From: Candidatus Bathyarchaeota archaeon
GTDB lineage: Archaea; Thermoproteota; Bathyarchaeia; Bathyarchaeales; Bathycorpusculaceae
DNA: 64,000 nucleotides
Reading direction: 5' to 3'
Assembly: GCA_026014545.1 (NCBI GenBank)
Contig: JAOZIH010000001.1
Span: forward strand, 273,808-337,807
A program made the position numbers and the translations under genes. The notes under the pieces were generated by a model that was not told the DNA's origin, did not search any database, and saw only the letters and a program-made list of their open reading frames with translations. Every line of letters begins with the position of its first letter. Position 1 is the stretch's first letter. Shown here piece by piece: positions 25,957 to 43,733 of this stretch.

Positions 25957-26140
25957 GTGAACTACCCCACCCTTACGGATGGGGCTTCCAGCTTAGGCTG
26001 GTTATGGGCTGGTTCACACGTTCAGCCCCGTGGATGGGCATATAGCTCATCCACCTCTCAAATTTTTTAGCAACATTGATGGCTCCGTTTAGGTCAGCGC
26101 TATATTCTCCGCAGTGAGCGCAGACAAACAAGCCCTGAGT
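25957..26140 (-). ncRNA. Predicted omega RNA at the 3' end of TnpB copy 1
   Basis: TnpB proteins use an RNA made from the 3' end of their own gene plus the element right end, with a guide taken from flanking DNA. Here the right end forms a hairpin (CCCCA / TGGGG, 25965-25983) and ends in GTAGTTCAC at 25957. The guide would be 25956 down to about 25937, on the pyrD side. The 5' limit is a guess. Confidence 0.4.
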
Positions 26141-27016
26141 TTCGCGTTTCCCCTCACACCCGCAGACATGACACGTTATTGAAGTATAGGCTTCGCTTGT
26201 GGTTATGACTGGAATCCCCACAAGCATAGCTTTATACTCTATCATTTTCGTTAGGCGATAATACGGCATATTGCTGACTATTCTGTTTAGGCGTTTACCT
26301 TTGCCGTTAACTCGCTGCCTTATTCCCTTGAGGTCTCCCAAAACTATGTAAGAGTTGGTTGCAAGGGCGAGGTTGACTATCCTTTTACTGACTCGGTGGA
26401 GGATGACGTTAACCATCCTTCTTTCCTTGCCTCCAACTCTCTTCACGACTTGAGTTAGACCTCTCTCTTGAAGCCTTCTACGGAGCCATGCATAATGGCG
26501 CCTTACTCCCCTAATTTCCTTACCGTAGAATAGGGCTTTCATCACGCTTCCATTCTGCCAAAGCACCGCAGTGGCAACGAAGCGCTCGCCCAAATCCACG
26601 CTTAGAATAGAGAAGCATTCTCGCACGGGCGGAGCTGGAAACTCGAAGGTTAACATGGCAATGTAGCGGTCTTTTCTCTTAACTATTTTGCTTTCGCATA
26701 GTTTAGCGTTTTCTGGAAACTCTCTGTGAGGTTTGACTGGAACCTTAATTCCTCCCCTTACGCCATAGACTGGAATCTTCAAAAACCAAAATGCCTTAGC
26801 CCTCCTAAGGTTAATTAAGTCGTTTCTCAAGCTAAGAGGATACTCTTTATGCTTAACTCTTCGATAGTATCTAAGAGCTTGGTGCTTATTCGCCGAATAC
26901 AACGGAACAGTCTTGTCTCCCCTAAGAAACTTCTGAAGGTTAGAGTATTCCCTATCCAACAACTCTTTTTTCCTTCGAGTCAGCCCAACAACGCCCGCTT
27001 GGATAGTCAACCTCAT
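25973..27016 (-). CDS. tnpB: TnpB RNA-guided nuclease homologue, copy 1
   Basis: A 347-residue TnpB. RuvC-I Asp is in SVDLGERFVATAV. The RuvC-II position reads YIVLGDLKGIR, with Gly where Glu is usual and an Asp next to it. RuvC-III Asp is in YSADLNGAINVAKK, after the zinc ribbon CHVC...CAHC. The N-terminal wedge region is short and Arg/Lys-rich. It lies directly upstream of pyrD on the same strand. Very similar to the copy at 41691-42782, differing mainly at the C terminus. Confidence 0.9.
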   Translation of the reverse strand: MRLTIQAGVVGLTRRKKELLDREYSNLQKFLRGDKTVPLYSANKHQALRYYRRVKHKEYPLSLRNDLINLRRAKAFWFLKIPVYGVRGGIKVPVKPHREFPENAKLCESKIVKRKDRYIAMLTFEFPAPPVRECFSILSVDLGERFVATAVLWQNGSVMKALFYGKEIRGVRRHYAWLRRRLQERGLTQVVKRVGGKERRMVNVILHRVSKRIVNLALATNSYIVLGDLKGIRQRVNGKGKRLNRIVSNMPYYRLTKMIEYKAMLVGIPVITTSEAYTSITCHVCGCEGKRETQGLFVCAHCGEYSADLNGAINVAKKFERWMSYMPIHGAERVNQPITSLSWKPHP

Positions 27017-27207
27017 AGCAAACTTTGACTAATGGTTTGAAAAATTTAAGTCTTACAACAATTCATCCCCGCCCCTTCGGACGGGGTCTTCTTGCGAGGT
27101 AAAGATAAAATGCAGGCTCTGTTCTATTGTGGTATTTTGTGGGAATATGACTTAGAAGCCAGGGGGATAGCTTTTCTACAAGTTTTAATATGCGGCAAGG
27201 TTTAAAT

Positions 27208-34086: not shown

Positions 34087-35274
34087 TCAGCTAAGGCTTT
34101 TCGCATTTAGCCTCACTTGAGAGTTCAGGGGTATCACACTCCCCCATCCCATACCTCTCATTAAGGCATGGGCTATGTTCACACATGCATTTAAATCCCT
34201 GTTGTAGAGCATTCCACACTTCTGGCATTTGAAGGCTCTTCCTTTGACTTGGGCAACATGCCCACATCTATGGCAGGTTCTTGAAGTATCTTTAGCTTCT
34301 ACATATCTAACTGCTATTCCTTTGAGATTAGCTTTGTATTCAAGGTAGGTTTGAAGTTTTCTGAAGGGAAGACTATGAAATCTTCTATTAAGGTTCTTAG
34401 ATTTGTTAAAGTTTCTTCTAATTTCATTTAACTTTTCCATCACTATGATTGGCTTTGGAAATTGCATAGCATAGGATACTATCTGATTTGCTATTATGTG
34501 AAGTTGTTGATTGACTTTTCGTTTCTCCTTGCCCTTAAGGGCCTTAATTTTCTTTAGAAGCTTCTTTTCTCCAAGCCTTCTTCTAATGTGGTTATATAAA
34601 CCTCTAATCTTTTTTATTTCTGAGCCTCTCCAAAACTGTCCTTTCACGGGTTTGTTCTGGTCGCTTTTTAATATTGCAACTGCCACTGCTAGACTTCTTT
34701 CGCCTCGATCTATCGCTATTACCGTTTCTGGACTATCTTCAACTTTAATCGTTCTCTTAAGAACTAAATGCGTATACCAAACGCCTTCGCGCTTAACCAT
34801 TTCAACAGTTGTAAATTGCCACTCGCTTCTGAAAGCCTCCTCTATTCTCAGCCTCTGCTTTTCTCCAAACATTATCGGCAAAGATACCTTTTCTCTTTTG
34901 TTTAGGCTTAACGTCAACCAATATGGTGTTAAAGCATTGGTTGTTTTAGAGAAGCTGTAGGATCTTCTATCGAATCTAATGGAAATTTGTTTAAGCCATA
35001 AAACGCTTTTCTCCTTCCTATTTTCTTTAAAAGACTTTAATGTTTCAATGGCTTTGTCCCTTGCTGTCTGGATTAACGCTGTGTTAAGTTTAAACTTCCT
35101 TTTTGCTTCCTTGTATCTGTTGCTATGCAAAAATATCTTTGATGTAGAGTTAAAATCCAAATACCATCGAACAGGCTTAAAGTATTCGTTAAGACACCTG
35201 TTTAAGGCTAAAACTTTCTGTTTGTTTGGTTTGAAAACTTTTCCCACAACCGTCAGTTGAACATCCTTCTGCAT
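34087..35274 (-). CDS. tnpB: TnpB RNA-guided nuclease homologue, copy 3
   Basis: A 395-residue TnpB with all RuvC acids: Asp in VIAIDRGERSLAVAV, Glu in IIVMEKLNEIRRN and Asp in NRDLNACVNIA, plus zinc ribbon CHRC...CQKC. It is only distantly related to copies 1 and 2. It sits immediately upstream of guaAb on the same strand. The right end probably finishes at the GTATCAC whose last base is at 34048, so the guide would be 34047 down to about 34028, in the guaAb leader. No tnpA. Confidence 0.9.
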   Translation of the reverse strand: MQKDVQLTVVGKVFKPNKQKVLALNRCLNEYFKPVRWYLDFNSTSKIFLHSNRYKEAKRKFKLNTALIQTARDKAIETLKSFKENRKEKSVLWLKQISIRFDRRSYSFSKTTNALTPYWLTLSLNKREKVSLPIMFGEKQRLRIEEAFRSEWQFTTVEMVKREGVWYTHLVLKRTIKVEDSPETVIAIDRGERSLAVAVAILKSDQNKPVKGQFWRGSEIKKIRGLYNHIRRRLGEKKLLKKIKALKGKEKRKVNQQLHIIANQIVSYAMQFPKPIIVMEKLNEIRRNFNKSKNLNRRFHSLPFRKLQTYLEYKANLKGIAVRYVEAKDTSRTCHRCGHVAQVKGRAFKCQKCGMLYNRDLNACVNIAHALMRGMGWGSVIPLNSQVRLNAKSLS

Positions 35275-38158: not shown

Positions 38159-39331
38159 TCATCCCTTTCCTCTCACCTCTATTACTTGAGGTTCATTGAA
38201 GACTTTCGCCGCCAACGGTAAAGGACGGCACATCGGAAGTTTCATGGCTATGTTCCAAGCAGCAACTAAGTGCCTATCCGCGTAGAACCTACATTTCTTG
38301 CATTTGAAAACGTGTCCATTCGGCTTATTAAATTCACCACATATCGGGCACGTTCTAGACGTGTTGTTAGCTTTAACATGTTCTGGTTTTAGGCCTTGTT
38401 CCATCGATTTGTATGAAACGCAGAACTGAATCCTCCTGAAAGGCAAGCTATGTAGCCTTCTATTTAAGCTCCGGTTACATCGTATCCTTTCTCTGATGTT
38501 GGTAAGCACCTCCATTACAGGTGTAACGTTCTCCTCCGCGATTACGTTGGCTATAAACCTTGAAGCTTTCTGGAGCACCTCGTTTACTCGCCTCTTCTCC
38601 CTTCCAGAATATTTTGCTAAAAGCTCAGCTTTCTTTTGCCCAGATGTCTTACGTTGGATGCGTCTTCTTTTCTTGAAGTATCGGTCTCTGATGTATTTTG
38701 CCTCGCTTACGTCTATCTTGATGAACCTTACCTTGTCAGGCCTAACTACTGCCAAGTCTATGCTCTTTTCATTGATGTCAATGCCTACCACGCCTTCAGA
38801 CTTGCGCTCCTCAACCGCCTTCTTGAAGGTTGCATGCAGGAAGAAGTCACTGCCTTTCCGCACAAGTCTTGAGCCCTTAACCTGCCAATCCCTAAACTTC
38901 TTTGAGTGTACATGAACATCGAAAGGTAACACAACATTACCTCTATGCGTAGCTAGCTTTAGGCGCCCCCAGTTAAACCAGAATAAATGTGTATCATCTA
39001 GGAGAATGCTGTTTAGGTTCTCAACTCTTGGAAGGCTAACGCTCTTTTTCTTTCTATAAAGCCGCCTATAAGACTTGAATATTGCCAGAGTCTGTGTTAT
39101 AGCCGTATAAATATAATGTGAGGGATAAGCTGAATACTTTACTCTTAATTCTTTGTATATTACTTCGTGAAGTCTCTTTCTTGAAGAAATGCCTAAAGAG
39201 ATGACACGTTTTAAACATTCTTTAACCATTTCAGTGTAGCTATTGAACAGTTCCTCAAGTATGATTACCTGTTTCGCGTCAGGTTTAACTCTGAACTTGC
39301 AGGTTTCACGCAACAATAATATGCTTGGCAA
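38159..39331 (-). CDS. tnpB: TnpB RNA-guided nuclease homologue, copy 4
   Basis: A 390-residue TnpB of a third subtype. RuvC acids are present: GIDINEKSIDLAV, VTPVMEVLTNIRE and YADRHLVAAWNIA. Zinc ribbon CPIC...CKKC. TTG start. Directly upstream of aCPSF2, same strand, 87 nt from its start. The element ends could not be placed. No tnpA nearby. Confidence 0.88.
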   Translation of the reverse strand: MPSILLLRETCKFRVKPDAKQVIILEELFNSYTEMVKECLKRVISLGISSRKRLHEVIYKELRVKYSAYPSHYIYTAITQTLAIFKSYRRLYRKKKSVSLPRVENLNSILLDDTHLFWFNWGRLKLATHRGNVVLPFDVHVHSKKFRDWQVKGSRLVRKGSDFFLHATFKKAVEERKSEGVVGIDINEKSIDLAVVRPDKVRFIKIDVSEAKYIRDRYFKKRRRIQRKTSGQKKAELLAKYSGREKRRVNEVLQKASRFIANVIAEENVTPVMEVLTNIRERIRCNRSLNRRLHSLPFRRIQFCVSYKSMEQGLKPEHVKANNTSRTCPICGEFNKPNGHVFKCKKCRFYADRHLVAAWNIAMKLPMCRPLPLAAKVFNEPQVIEVRGKG

Positions 39332-40068: not shown

Positions 40069-41694
40069 TTATTCGCTCAAATGTTTGCGCAGAATCATCT
40101 CTAAACGAGTTAAAATGTTTTTGCTTCCTTCAGCGCGGATGTTTACATGCTCAAACTTGATGCCTTTCTTTAGACATGAGCGACCGCAGTACTTCTTAAC
40201 TTTGCTGTCCCATTGCTGCGGGTCATCAAGAAGCACTACTGACTCATAGCTGGTCTTCGTAATGTACTCTGATAGTTGTTTTGCCACGTATTCAATTGTC
40301 TCTTTGTCGAGTGGCAGGGCTACTTCATGCTGGGACAGCGGGTAAACCTCGTCTAGCTCCAGCGGAACCACTCCGAAAGGCGCCGCGTAGAAGCAAACAT
40401 GCACCCTGCTGGAGAGGGCTTTGCCTATATTCTGAAGCGCTTTTCTTATCTTGGCGTATTCTGGTGTTTTGTGAAATGGTTTCTTGCGGGTTTGAGGCGA
40501 AAGCAGAAGCACTCGTGCAGTTTCAGGTGGAGAATAGCGTTCGAAAAGGCGATTTCGATAATTAGTAACTTCTGGCCTTATGATGCTGAGGGAGCTGAAA
40601 AAGAAGAGGCCGCTGCGCTTCACAGAGGGACTATGTGCCGCGATAAAGTCCGTGTAGTTCTTCAGCTTCTTCAGCGCAGTGAGAAGCGCTGGATGCGTGT
40701 GTGCGCGCATTTCCAGATGCTCCCAGAGGCGGCCATCTCTTATAGCTTGTTTTATGCGTTTTAATTCGGCTTGGCAGACGTAGAGATTATGCTCTGCCAA
40801 GAAAGCAGCCCTATCCGCTTCGGGCATTTCGAGAACTGCCTTAGGCGTTGCACTTGTGCATTTTGGGCACTGGCAAGGGAAAAAATCGAGTTCGTCAAGT
40901 CGCCATGTGCCGTTTTCGGTCATGTAGCGGTTTTCTCTGGCGTAGAGGGCGTAGGCGGCGGAGTCGAAAAGGTCGCAGCCTAAGGCTACGGCTAAAGCGA
41001 ACATCATCGGGTGCCCGGCGCCGAAGAGATGGAGAGGGCGCTCAAGGGGCAAATGCTGCTTTGCCGTCAGGATCATGTCGACTAGCACGTCAAAACGGTA
41101 GTTTTCCATGACCTCAGTGGGGCTTCCAAGCGCATGCACATGGAATGGCAGCTTGCCCATTTCAATAGCGGATTTTGCGACCAAGTCTAGATGGCGGCCG
41201 CCTTGAACCGGCCCGACCCAGAGTATGTCCTCGCGTGTTTTTGTTTGGAAAAAGATTTTGGCGCGCTGCAGCGTCTCCTCCACTGTTTTTTCGGCTTGGT
41301 TCTTTGTTATTCGCCATCCAGTGGGAATATCCAGTATCGTGGCTATGTCGCTGCCTATGCGCTCCTGATACTCCACAATTTCCGCTTGGCTTACTTCCAC
41401 ATTACCATAAACGAGGATTTGGTAGGCACCTGAATCCGTCATGACGGAGCCGTTGAAATCCAAAAATTTGTGTAGGCCCAGCTCAATTGGCTTGTTCTGA
41501 AAGCGTTTTTTGAGGATATACGCGTTTGTTATAACGGCTTCGAAGCCGAAGGTTTCCTTAAGCTTCCTCGGCGAAACAAGCTGGATGTTAGGGTTTATCA
41601 CGGGAAAAAGAAGCGGAGTCTCCACCGTGCCGCTTTTAGTCTTCAACCTACCGATTCTCGCAAGCAAGTCCTTGTCTTTAACTTCGAAGCTCAT
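40069..41694 (-). CDS. tgtA: Archaeosine tRNA-guanine transglycosylase
   Basis: A 541-residue enzyme that swaps guanine-15 of tRNA for preQ0, the first tRNA step to archaeosine. The catalytic domain has FPVINPNIQLV, VMTDSGAYQILVYG, TILDIPTGWRI and HLFGAGHPMMFAL. The zinc motif is CQCPKC near residue 275. The C-terminal part ends without an obvious PUA domain, a layout known in some archaea. ATG 41694 overlaps the stop region of TnpB copy 2, so its original promoter is displaced. Confidence 0.93.
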   Translation of the reverse strand: MSFEVKDKDLLARIGRLKTKSGTVETPLLFPVINPNIQLVSPRKLKETFGFEAVITNAYILKKRFQNKPIELGLHKFLDFNGSVMTDSGAYQILVYGNVEVSQAEIVEYQERIGSDIATILDIPTGWRITKNQAEKTVEETLQRAKIFFQTKTREDILWVGPVQGGRHLDLVAKSAIEMGKLPFHVHALGSPTEVMENYRFDVLVDMILTAKQHLPLERPLHLFGAGHPMMFALAVALGCDLFDSAAYALYARENRYMTENGTWRLDELDFFPCQCPKCTSATPKAVLEMPEADRAAFLAEHNLYVCQAELKRIKQAIRDGRLWEHLEMRAHTHPALLTALKKLKNYTDFIAAHSPSVKRSGLFFFSSLSIIRPEVTNYRNRLFERYSPPETARVLLLSPQTRKKPFHKTPEYAKIRKALQNIGKALSSRVHVCFYAAPFGVVPLELDEVYPLSQHEVALPLDKETIEYVAKQLSEYITKTSYESVVLLDDPQQWDSKVKKYCGRSCLKKGIKFEHVNIRAEGSKNILTRLEMILRKHLSE

Positions 41695-42782
41695 TGTGAA
41701 CCTACACAATCACTATTGCAGGCTTGTGAACTACCCTTCGCTGTCGCAAAGGGCTTCCAGCTTGGGCTGGTTATGGGCTGGTTCACAGCAGCCCCGTGGA
41801 TGGGCATATAGCCCGTCCACCTCTCAAATTTTTTAGCTATATTGATGGCTCCGTTTAGGTCAGCGTTGTATTCTCCACAGTGAGGACAAAGGAATAGCCC
41901 CTGAGTTTTACGTTTTCCCTCACATCCACAGACGTGGCATGTTTGGCTTGTATAGGCTTCGCTTGTAGTTACTACTGGAACACCTGCCAACATAGCCTTA
42001 TACTCAATCATTTTTGTTAGGCAATAGAAGGGCATATTGCTTACTATGCGATTGAAACGTTTGCCTTTACCGTTCGCTCGCCGTCTAATCCCCGTGAGGT
42101 CTCCCAAGACTATGTAAGAGTTGGTTGCAAAGGCGAGGCTGACTATCCTTTTGCTGGCTCGATGAAGGATGGCGCCAACCACCCTTCTCTCCTTGCTTCC
42201 AACTCTTTTTACAACTTGGGTTAGACCTCTCTCCTGAAGTCTTCTGCGGAGCCACGCGTAATGGCGTCTCACTCCTCTAATTTCCCTGCCAAGGAAAAGG
42301 GTTTTCATTACCGTTCCATTCTGCCAATGCACCGCAGTGTCAGCAAAACGCTCACCCAAATCCACGGCAAGAATAGAGGAGCAGTCACGAATGAGTGGGG
42401 CTGAAAACTCGAAGGTCAACATTGCAATGTAGCGGTCTTTTCTCTTAACTATTTTGCTCTCGCAAAGTTCCGCCTTCTCTGGAAACTCCCTGTGAGGCTT
42501 AACAGGAACTTTGATTCCGCCTCTTACGCCATATACTGGAACCTTCAAGAACCAAAATGCCTTAGCCCTCTTGAGGTTTATTAAATCTTTTCTCAGACTA
42601 AGAGGATATTCTCTTTGCTTTATTTTCCTGTAGTATCTTAAGGCTTGCTGTTTATTCGCTGAATACAGTGGAGCAGTCTTAGCTTCCCTGAGAAAACGCT
42701 GAAGGTTAGAGTATTCCCTATCCAACAGCCATTTTTTTCTTCGAGTCAGTTCCACGATACCTGCTTGGATAGTCAGCTTCAT
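41691..42782 (-). CDS. tnpB: TnpB RNA-guided nuclease homologue, copy 2
   Basis: Close relative of copy 1, starting MKLTIQAGIVELTRRKKWLL at ATG 42782. RuvC-I Asp is in AVDLGERFADTAV, the RuvC-II position again reads YIVLGDLTGIR (Gly for Glu), and RuvC-III Asp is in YNADLNGAINIAKK. After PITSPSWKP the copy 1 stop is lost, so about 17 extra residues are read through the element right end into the tgtA start. No tnpA. Confidence 0.9.
   Translation of the reverse strand: MKLTIQAGIVELTRRKKWLLDREYSNLQRFLREAKTAPLYSANKQQALRYYRKIKQREYPLSLRKDLINLKRAKAFWFLKVPVYGVRGGIKVPVKPHREFPEKAELCESKIVKRKDRYIAMLTFEFSAPLIRDCSSILAVDLGERFADTAVHWQNGTVMKTLFLGREIRGVRRHYAWLRRRLQERGLTQVVKRVGSKERRVVGAILHRASKRIVSLAFATNSYIVLGDLTGIRRRANGKGKRFNRIVSNMPFYCLTKMIEYKAMLAGVPVVTTSEAYTSQTCHVCGCEGKRKTQGLFLCPHCGEYNADLNGAINIAKKFERWTGYMPIHGAAVNQPITSPSWKPFATAKGSSQACNSDCVGSQ
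41726..41900 (-). ncRNA. Predicted omega RNA at the 3' end of TnpB copy 2
   Basis: Same right-end structure as copy 1: hairpin CCCTT / AAGGG near 41733-41752, then GTAGTTCAC ending at 41726. The guide would be 41725 down to about 41706, which lies 12-31 nt upstream of the tgtA ATG. The 5' limit is a guess. Confidence 0.4.
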
Positions 42783-42871
42783 AGCAAACTTGAAACAGCA
42801 TTTTAATATATTTAAGCTTAATCGCAATTTATCCTCATGTTTTCGCGTGGAGGTCTTCTTGCGACTTTCAG
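41726..42871 (-). mobile_element. TnpB-only IS200/IS605-type element, copy 2
   Basis: 1146 bp, with the same ends as the copy at 25957-27104. The left end follows TTTAT (plus-strand ATAAA 42872-42876), with conserved TCGCAAGAAGACC seven bases inside, and carries a CCTC / GAGG hairpin (~42834-42854). The right end finishes in TTCAC. It is inserted between tgtA and the divergent PAC2 gene. Confidence 0.75.
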
Positions 42872-42980
42872 ATAAAAAAGGTTAGGCTCAGCGTGCCAAC
42901 AAGTGCGCCATCAGTTTAGATGAGGCATCCTTATATTCGCTTGTTTTCTCTAATACACAGCCAAGTGAAGGCGCTAGATC

Positions 42981-43733
42981 ATGGTTTGCACTATTGAATT
43001 CAGCGAAATGCCGAAACTCAACGATCCCATACTGATCGAGGGGTTGCCAGGAATTGGCTTCGTTGCTAATATTGCCTGCCTGCACCTTATTAATGAACTG
43101 AAGGCTAAACGGTTCGCTCAAGTGGTTTCCGCATCTTTTCAAGACCTTGCGGTGACAACCGAAGCAGGTGGTGTCCGCTCACCCATAAGCGAGCTTTATT
43201 ATTATAAGCGTGAAGATGGCGGGCGCGACTTAATCATATGGTATGGTAACACGCAGGCGCTGACTACGTTTGGGCAATACGAGTTATGCGGCAAAATACT
43301 GGATATAGCACAGGAACTGGGCTGCCGCTTCGTCATTTCCATCGGCGGCTATAAGAAAGATGAAGTTCAGTCTGTTCCAGGACTTTATACTGCAGCCACG
43401 GACGGTGAAACGCTTAAGGAGGCGTTGGATTTGGGAACTAAGATAATGGTTGGCCACATATTCGGCATTGCTGGTTTGCTCATAGGCTTGGGTAGGATTA
43501 GAAATTTGAGAGGTTTTGCGCTTCTGGTGGATACGCCTGGTTTGTATCCAGATGTGAACGCCACGCGGTATGCGTTAACCGCCTTAAGCAAGTATCTGAA
43601 CTTGAATCTTGACTTATCAAGGTTGGATTCTGCATTGGAGCAGACGAAGAAAATGCTGGAGCCCTTTGGTTTGATTAGAAATATTGTTGAAGAAAAGAAG
43701 AAAGAGGAGCAGCAGATGCGCTGGTTTATTTAG
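42981..43733 (+). CDS. PAC2-family proteasome assembly chaperone
   Basis: A 250-residue PAC2 protein. LIEGLPGIGFVANIACLHLI and FISIGGYK-like ISIGGYKKDE blocks, then GIAGLLIGLGRIRNL and LLVDTPGLYPD, are family signatures. The C terminus RWFI resembles the HbYX tail with Phe for Tyr that docks in 20S proteasome pockets. It ends in an 8-bp convergent overlap with the Sm-like gene. Confidence 0.88.
   Translation: MVCTIEFSEMPKLNDPILIEGLPGIGFVANIACLHLINELKAKRFAQVVSASFQDLAVTTEAGGVRSPISELYYYKREDGGRDLIIWYGNTQALTTFGQYELCGKILDIAQELGCRFVISIGGYKKDEVQSVPGLYTAATDGETLKEALDLGTKIMVGHIFGIAGLLIGLGRIRNLRGFALLVDTPGLYPDVNATRYALTALSKYLNLNLDLSRLDSALEQTKKMLEPFGLIRNIVEEKKKEEQQMRWFI

What the first reader, a model, noticed from the sequence alone, without database searches (positions are those of the whole stretch)
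41694..42980. TnpB insertion appears to split the tgtA TATA box
Seen: aligning the ends of copies 1 and 2 gives insertion after TTTAT. Rejoining the flanks of copy 2 gives CTTTTTTAT + AAGCC, a good archaeal TATA element about 35-40 nt upstream of the tgtA ATG. Inference: a TTTAT target motif is nearly an archaeal TATA box, so this family would tend to insert into promoters. That could explain the position pattern, and also require the element to supply transcription of an important tRNA-modification gene.
Basis: partly seen in the sequence, partly recalled or inferred. Interest (0 to 1): 0.62.

Follow-up and report, generated by a model that had tools for sequence, protein, structure and literature searches.

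The report
TnpB transposon inside tgtA's TATA box
A small TnpB-carrying transposon in a Bathyarchaeia-like archaeal genome has landed exactly inside the promoter switch (TATA box) of a tRNA-modification gene, as 27 relatives without it show, but a survey of 122 insertions with this type of right end gives no sign that such elements generally seek out promoters.

Summary
Confirmed: the element (window 41726-42871, minus strand, 1146 bp) is inserted after TTTAT with no target duplication, and the rejoined flanks read CCTTTTTTAT|AAGCC, 31 nt upstream of the tgtA ATG. Natural empty sites settle it. Of 29 relatives' tgtA loci, 27 carry the unsplit box (consensus GGCTAACGTTTTTTATAAGCG) 29-38 nt before the start; the rejoined site scores 22.0 bits on their matrix, the occupied one -7.0. 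tgtA is single-copy and intact, so it presumably now relies on transcription from or through the element; the tnpB frame runs out of the element and its TGA overlaps the tgtA ATG (ATGA). Read-through is inferred, not shown. The generalisation fails: over 122 insertions sharing this right end, a co-directional gene starts 20-60 nt downstream in 9.8%, against 10.1% of background intergenic TTTAT sites; ends of convergent genes are over-represented instead (28.7% v 13.6%). Of the genome's three copies only this one splits a promoter. Incidental: when the TTTAT covers an antisense stop codon, the right end turns NNA-TAA into NNG-TGA (guaA, checked in relatives). Solo-TnpB elements with a TTTAT motif are known from Sulfolobus; this is a new member with an unusually well documented promoter-splitting insertion.

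The parts
41726..42871 (-). TnpB element copy 2 (1146 bp), from LE first base C (42871) to RE last base C (41726)
   Evidence: end alignment with copies 1 and 3 and 27 empty sites
42872..42879 (-). left part of the split tgtA TATA box, TTTTTTAT (TTTAT = target motif, 42872-42876)
42880..42887 (-). BRE-like GCCTAACC upstream of the split box, matching the relatives' GGCTAACG
   Evidence: consensus
41721..41725 (-). right part of the split box, AAGCC
40069..41694 (-). tgtA (archaeal TGT, PF01702 plus DUF5591), ATG at 41694; single copy, intact
41691..42782 (-). tnpB (363 aa from ATG 42782); frame leaves the element and its TGA (41691-41693) overlaps the tgtA ATG as ATGA
42807..42815 (-). TATA-like TTAAATATA about 26-34 nt before the tnpB ATG: probable element promoter
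   Evidence: similar T/A-rich box at about the same place in copies 1, 3 and relatives
42816..42871 (-). LE hairpin region; central stem eroded in copy 2 (-13.3 v -22.2 and -20.8 kcal/mol in copies 1, 3)
41726..41786 (-). RE / predicted omega-RNA scaffold (61 nt GTGAAC...GTTCAC), hairpin kept by compensatory changes
   Evidence: (z -5.5)
41706..41725 (-). predicted 20-nt guide AAGCCTGCAATAGTGATTGT, which is also the tgtA 5' leader
   Evidence: position next to RE; inference from TnpB biology
25957..27104 (-). element copy 1 (1148 bp) upstream of pyrD; does not split the conserved pyrD promoter
42981..43733 (+). divergent PAC2-family gene on the other side; same neighbour in many empty-site relatives

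Best explanation
A solo-tnpB element of the IS200/IS605 superfamily (IS1341-like) inserted after TTTAT inside the TATA box of tgtA, in the sense orientation, without target duplication (shown). This removed the native BRE/TATA from tgtA (shown by sequence) and left BRE plus TTTTTTAT at the outer edge of the left end. tgtA is intact and single-copy, so it is most likely now transcribed by read-through of a tnpB-tgtA transcript started at the element's own TATA at 42807-42815 and/or at the left half of the old box, with possible translational coupling through the ATGA overlap (inferred). The first ~20 nt of the tgtA leader serve as TnpB guide, so the nuclease would cut an empty TTTTTTAT|AAGCC allele and favour keeping the insertion (inferred). 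Hitting a promoter is a by-product of an AT-rich target motif plus loss of insertions inside genes, not a promoter preference.
For: Junction and empty sites. TTTAT in all LEs read, one of them followed by T instead of C. Same-genus G001 lacks the element and has CGCATTTTAT|AAGCGC at this place. TnpB family absent from 89 of 91 genomes of the GTDB family, close relatives at ~80% in other archaeal phyla: horizontal arrival. tgtA dN/dS about 0.09-0.10 against G001; TnpB dN/dS about 0.12-0.20 between the three copies. RE fold and covariation. No T-run at the RE that would end transcription. Background comparison. TTTAT as motif of solo TnpB in Sulfolobus islandicus (PMC10640517); TnpB makes omega-RNA from its own mRNA (PMC10278001).
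Against: No transcript data exist: read-through is not shown. Omega-RNA processing could cut the proposed tnpB-tgtA transcript just before tgtA. The ATGA overlap can be chance (right frame 1 in 3, short distance, and the CACAATGAGC context is ancestral). The element is 81-87% identical to its sisters and the copy 2 LE is eroded, so present mobility or nuclease activity is uncertain; the canonical RuvC-II Glu is Gly. The Y1 transposase of the one element in the genome with a matching RE carries a stop codon.
Confidence: 0.8

Rival explanations
1. The family is a promoter-targeting element: TTTAT equals the archaeal TATA box, so insertion into promoters is its normal habit and it captures host promoters for tnpB.
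For: This site and the G075 site; L110 looks alike; four TnpB genes in the window lie upstream of co-directional genes.
Against: 122 insertions: co-directional start 20-60 nt downstream 9.8% v 10.1% background, p=1.0; 17 verified-TTTAT intergenic sites 3/17 v 12%, p=0.36. The left-half box keeps only 7.6 of 22 bits, and tnpB has its own TATA-like box.
Confidence: 0.08
2. tgtA is silenced or strongly reduced; the insertion is a tolerated lesion because archaeosine can be dispensable.
For: Canonical box lost; best generic TATA match between -50 and -20 is 5 of 8. That tgtA mutants of some archaea are viable is from memory, not checked here.
Against: tgtA is open over 541 codons with dN/dS about 0.09-0.10 against G001, though that pair mostly measures time before the insertion.
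Confidence: 0.2
3. TnpB is nuclease-dead and acts as an RNA-guided repressor (TldR-like).
For: RuvC-II Glu is Gly in this family.
Against: The aligned family has an invariant Glu at 275, just before the zinc-binding cysteines, which the model places at the end of a strand; a TnpB with a RuvC-II rearrangement cleaves DNA (PMC10278001). In its own genome the guide's matching site has been separated from its TTTAT by the element itself.
Confidence: 0.07

Closest known systems
Solo-tnpB IS200/IS605 (IS1341-type) elements of Sulfolobus islandicus (PMC10640517)
   Same: tnpB only, no tnpA, TTTAT next to LE, conserved RE with omega-RNA, variable guide beyond it
   Different: TnpB here has a RuvC-II rearrangement (IVLGDL plus invariant E275) and a GAAGCC..GGTAGTTCAC right end; insertion splits a promoter. 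Whether the Sulfolobus solo TnpBs share these features was not checked
IS605-type tnpA+tnpB element of the same genome (G000:C33:250837-252430)
   Same: same RE hairpin type GGAAGCCCC..GGGGTAGTTCAC; could have supplied Y1 transposase in trans
   Different: distantly related TnpB; tnpA interrupted by a stop
TnpB clades with RuvC-II rearrangement (RII-r) / NADXN RuvC-III (PMC10278001)
   Same: Glu missing at the canonical RuvC-II place, NADLN at RuvC-III
   Different: which RII-r clade it belongs to was not determined

Membership tests
TnpB (OMEGA nuclease) | RuvC-like core with C-terminal zinc-binding TNB domain | tested here: met
   PF07282 E=1.3e-19; PDB TnpB/Cas12f matches down to 3e-14
TnpB (OMEGA nuclease) | RuvC D-E-D triad | tested here: inconclusive
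   D141 and D308 invariant; canonical E is G227, invariant E275 may replace it
TnpB (OMEGA nuclease) | omega-RNA at the 3' end overlapping RE | tested here: met
   RE fold z -5.5 and compensatory changes; expression not testable
IS200/IS605 superfamily element | subterminal hairpins at LE and RE, no target duplication, insertion 3' to a fixed short motif | tested here: met
IS200/IS605 superfamily element | Y1 transposase (tnpA) within the element | tested here: not met
   none in the element; two Y1 matches elsewhere in G000; hence filed as an IS1341-like solo-tnpB element, not as a complete IS605
Promoter-targeting element | excess of insertions at promoters over matched motif sites | tested here: not met

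The most novel reading that the evidence does not exclude
The ends of this element family are matched to their target so that insertion is mild for the host: TTTAT|..GTTCAC read backwards turns a hit stop codon NNA-TAA into the nearly always synonymous NNG-TGA (4 of 17 intergenic verified sites v 4.2% background), and in the promoter case it makes a tnpB-tgtA cotranscript whose leader is also the guide, tying host gene expression to the nuclease.
Probability: 0.2. Interest if true: 0.55.

Novelty: new member of a known kind. Interest (0 to 1): 0.38.

Why it matters
It is a clean natural case of a TnpB element replacing the promoter of a conserved tRNA-modification gene, with many empty-site relatives as controls, so host-gene expression after such an insertion is testable. 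It also shows that the resemblance between TnpB target motifs and archaeal TATA boxes does not by itself produce promoter targeting.

Tried and rejected
General promoter preference (rejected by background comparison). Alternative RE boundary one base on, TTCACA|AGCC (rejected: relatives read ATAAG). Chance TATA on rejoining (rejected). A promoter inside the 3' part of the element at the right distance (none found). Copy 1 splitting the pyrD promoter (rejected). Papers linking TnpB target motifs with archaeal TATA boxes: none found in the open-access library. Distances between catalytic residues in the AlphaFold model could not be measured with the tools.

Full report
WHAT IS THERE. The window is part of a 508-kb contig of an archaeal genome, G000 (98% complete); genomes of the same family include records named Bathyarchaeia (G075's element is locus L108). 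Two copies of one tnpB element lie in the window, a third on another contig (G000:C34), and a similar RE 23 kb upstream of the window belongs to a tnpA+tnpB element. Copy 2 spans 41726-42871 on the minus strand. Its outer bases are TTTAT|CTGAAAGTCGCAAGAAGACC and GGGTAGTTCAC|AAGCC.

EMPTY SITES. tgtA homologues were found in 83 of 91 genomes of the family, and the 29 best loci apart from G000 were read. Twenty-seven show TTTTTTAT (or close) followed mostly by AAG, 29-38 nt before the start codon. One (L023) has no box and one (L020) was mis-anchored by the script although TGTTTTTTATACCC is visible. G001, the only other genome of the genus, has no copy of the element and reads CGCATTTTAT|AAGCGC. 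Several empty loci have the same PAC2-family neighbour, so they are the orthologous place. The rejoined G000 site scores 22.0 on an 18-nt matrix from these relatives; the occupied site scores -7.0 at the same position; the left remnant 7.6. The junction is therefore TTTAT|AAGCC with no duplication and no loss.

CONSEQUENCE FOR tgtA. tgtA occurs once in the genome, is intact, and shows dN 0.10, dS 0.94-1.19 against G001; most of that record may predate the insertion. Between -50 and -20 no generic TATA matches better than 5 of 8 positions. Upstream, tnpB has a TATA-like box about 30 nt before its own ATG, and similar boxes are seen in relatives. The tnpB frame of copy 2 lacks the in-element stop of copy 1 and ends in TGA overlapping the tgtA ATG. 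Read-through with coupling is the simplest supply, but this is inference.

DOES THE FAMILY SEEK PROMOTERS? Close relatives with the same LE were found in other archaeal phyla and by a pattern search (18 listed matches, one of them copy 1, in 8 of 398 genomes); all LEs read show TTTAT. Nineteen sites with both ends were classified against all TTTAT sites in the same flanks: promoter-like 3 of 17 intergenic v 20 of 166 (p=0.36), stop codon within the motif 4 of 17 v 7 of 166 (p=0.011, noticed after the fact). A wider pattern for the right end gave matches in 37 of 398 genomes; 122 distinct flanks were classified: co-directional start at 20-60 nt 9.8% v 10.1% (p=1.0), convergent gene end within 60 nt 28.7% v 13.6% (p=0.001). 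Caveats: the TTTAT motif was verified only for the narrower set, genes were called by simple ORF rules, and copies within one genome are not fully independent.

OTHER EMPTY SITES. Copy 3: relatives' guaA mostly ends GAA-TAA where G000 has GAG-TGA, the TGA being part of the RE. G075: relative G073 reads CAAATCTTATAAAGC where G075 has AAATTTTAT|element|AAAGC, 45 nt before an ATG. Copy 1: the conserved pyrD promoter of relatives lies downstream of the RE and appears unsplit.

THE NUCLEASE. TnpB has the zinc-binding TNB domain and D141/D308; the canonical Glu is Gly and an invariant Glu275 precedes the zinc-binding cysteines. The AlphaFold model (mean pLDDT 79.7) puts a strand at 270-274 and leaves the copy-2 tail 327-363 at low confidence; distances could not be measured. 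A TnpB with a rearranged RuvC-II has been shown active (PMC10278001). The three copies differ with dN/dS of about 0.12-0.20.

VERDICT. Observation confirmed; promoter split shown; element-driven expression of tgtA likely but unproven; promoter preference of the family not supported.

Noticed in passing
L165 / G000:C34 near 37569 (copy 3), also L163, L063, L094: When TTTAT covers the stop codon of an antisense gene, the RE end (GTTCAC, reverse GTGAAC) changes NNA-TAA to NNG-TGA, leaving the protein unchanged. Frame test over long convergent ORFs is suggestive only (8 of 14, p=0.058).
   Followed up: partly
122 right-end flanks: Insertions with this RE are twice as often next to the end of a convergent gene as background intergenic TTTAT sites.
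   Followed up: partly
L158, L161, L163 (genome G278): 251-bp derivatives with the same LE and RE but no tnpB, MITE-like; G278 has 24 RE matches.
   Followed up: no
window 34087-35274 and 38159-39331 (-): Two distantly related TnpB genes also lie directly upstream of co-directional genes (a GuaA-like PPase gene, overlapping its ORF start; a beta-CASP RNase-like gene). Their ends were not defined.
   Followed up: no
L068 (Wukongarchaeum) and window copy 1: TnpB elements of this superfamily lie upstream of a pyrD-like gene in two distant archaea; coincidence not excluded.
   Followed up: no
window 42816-42871: The LE hairpin of copy 2 is eroded while its RE hairpin is kept by compensatory changes, as if RNA function outlived mobility.
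   Followed up: partly
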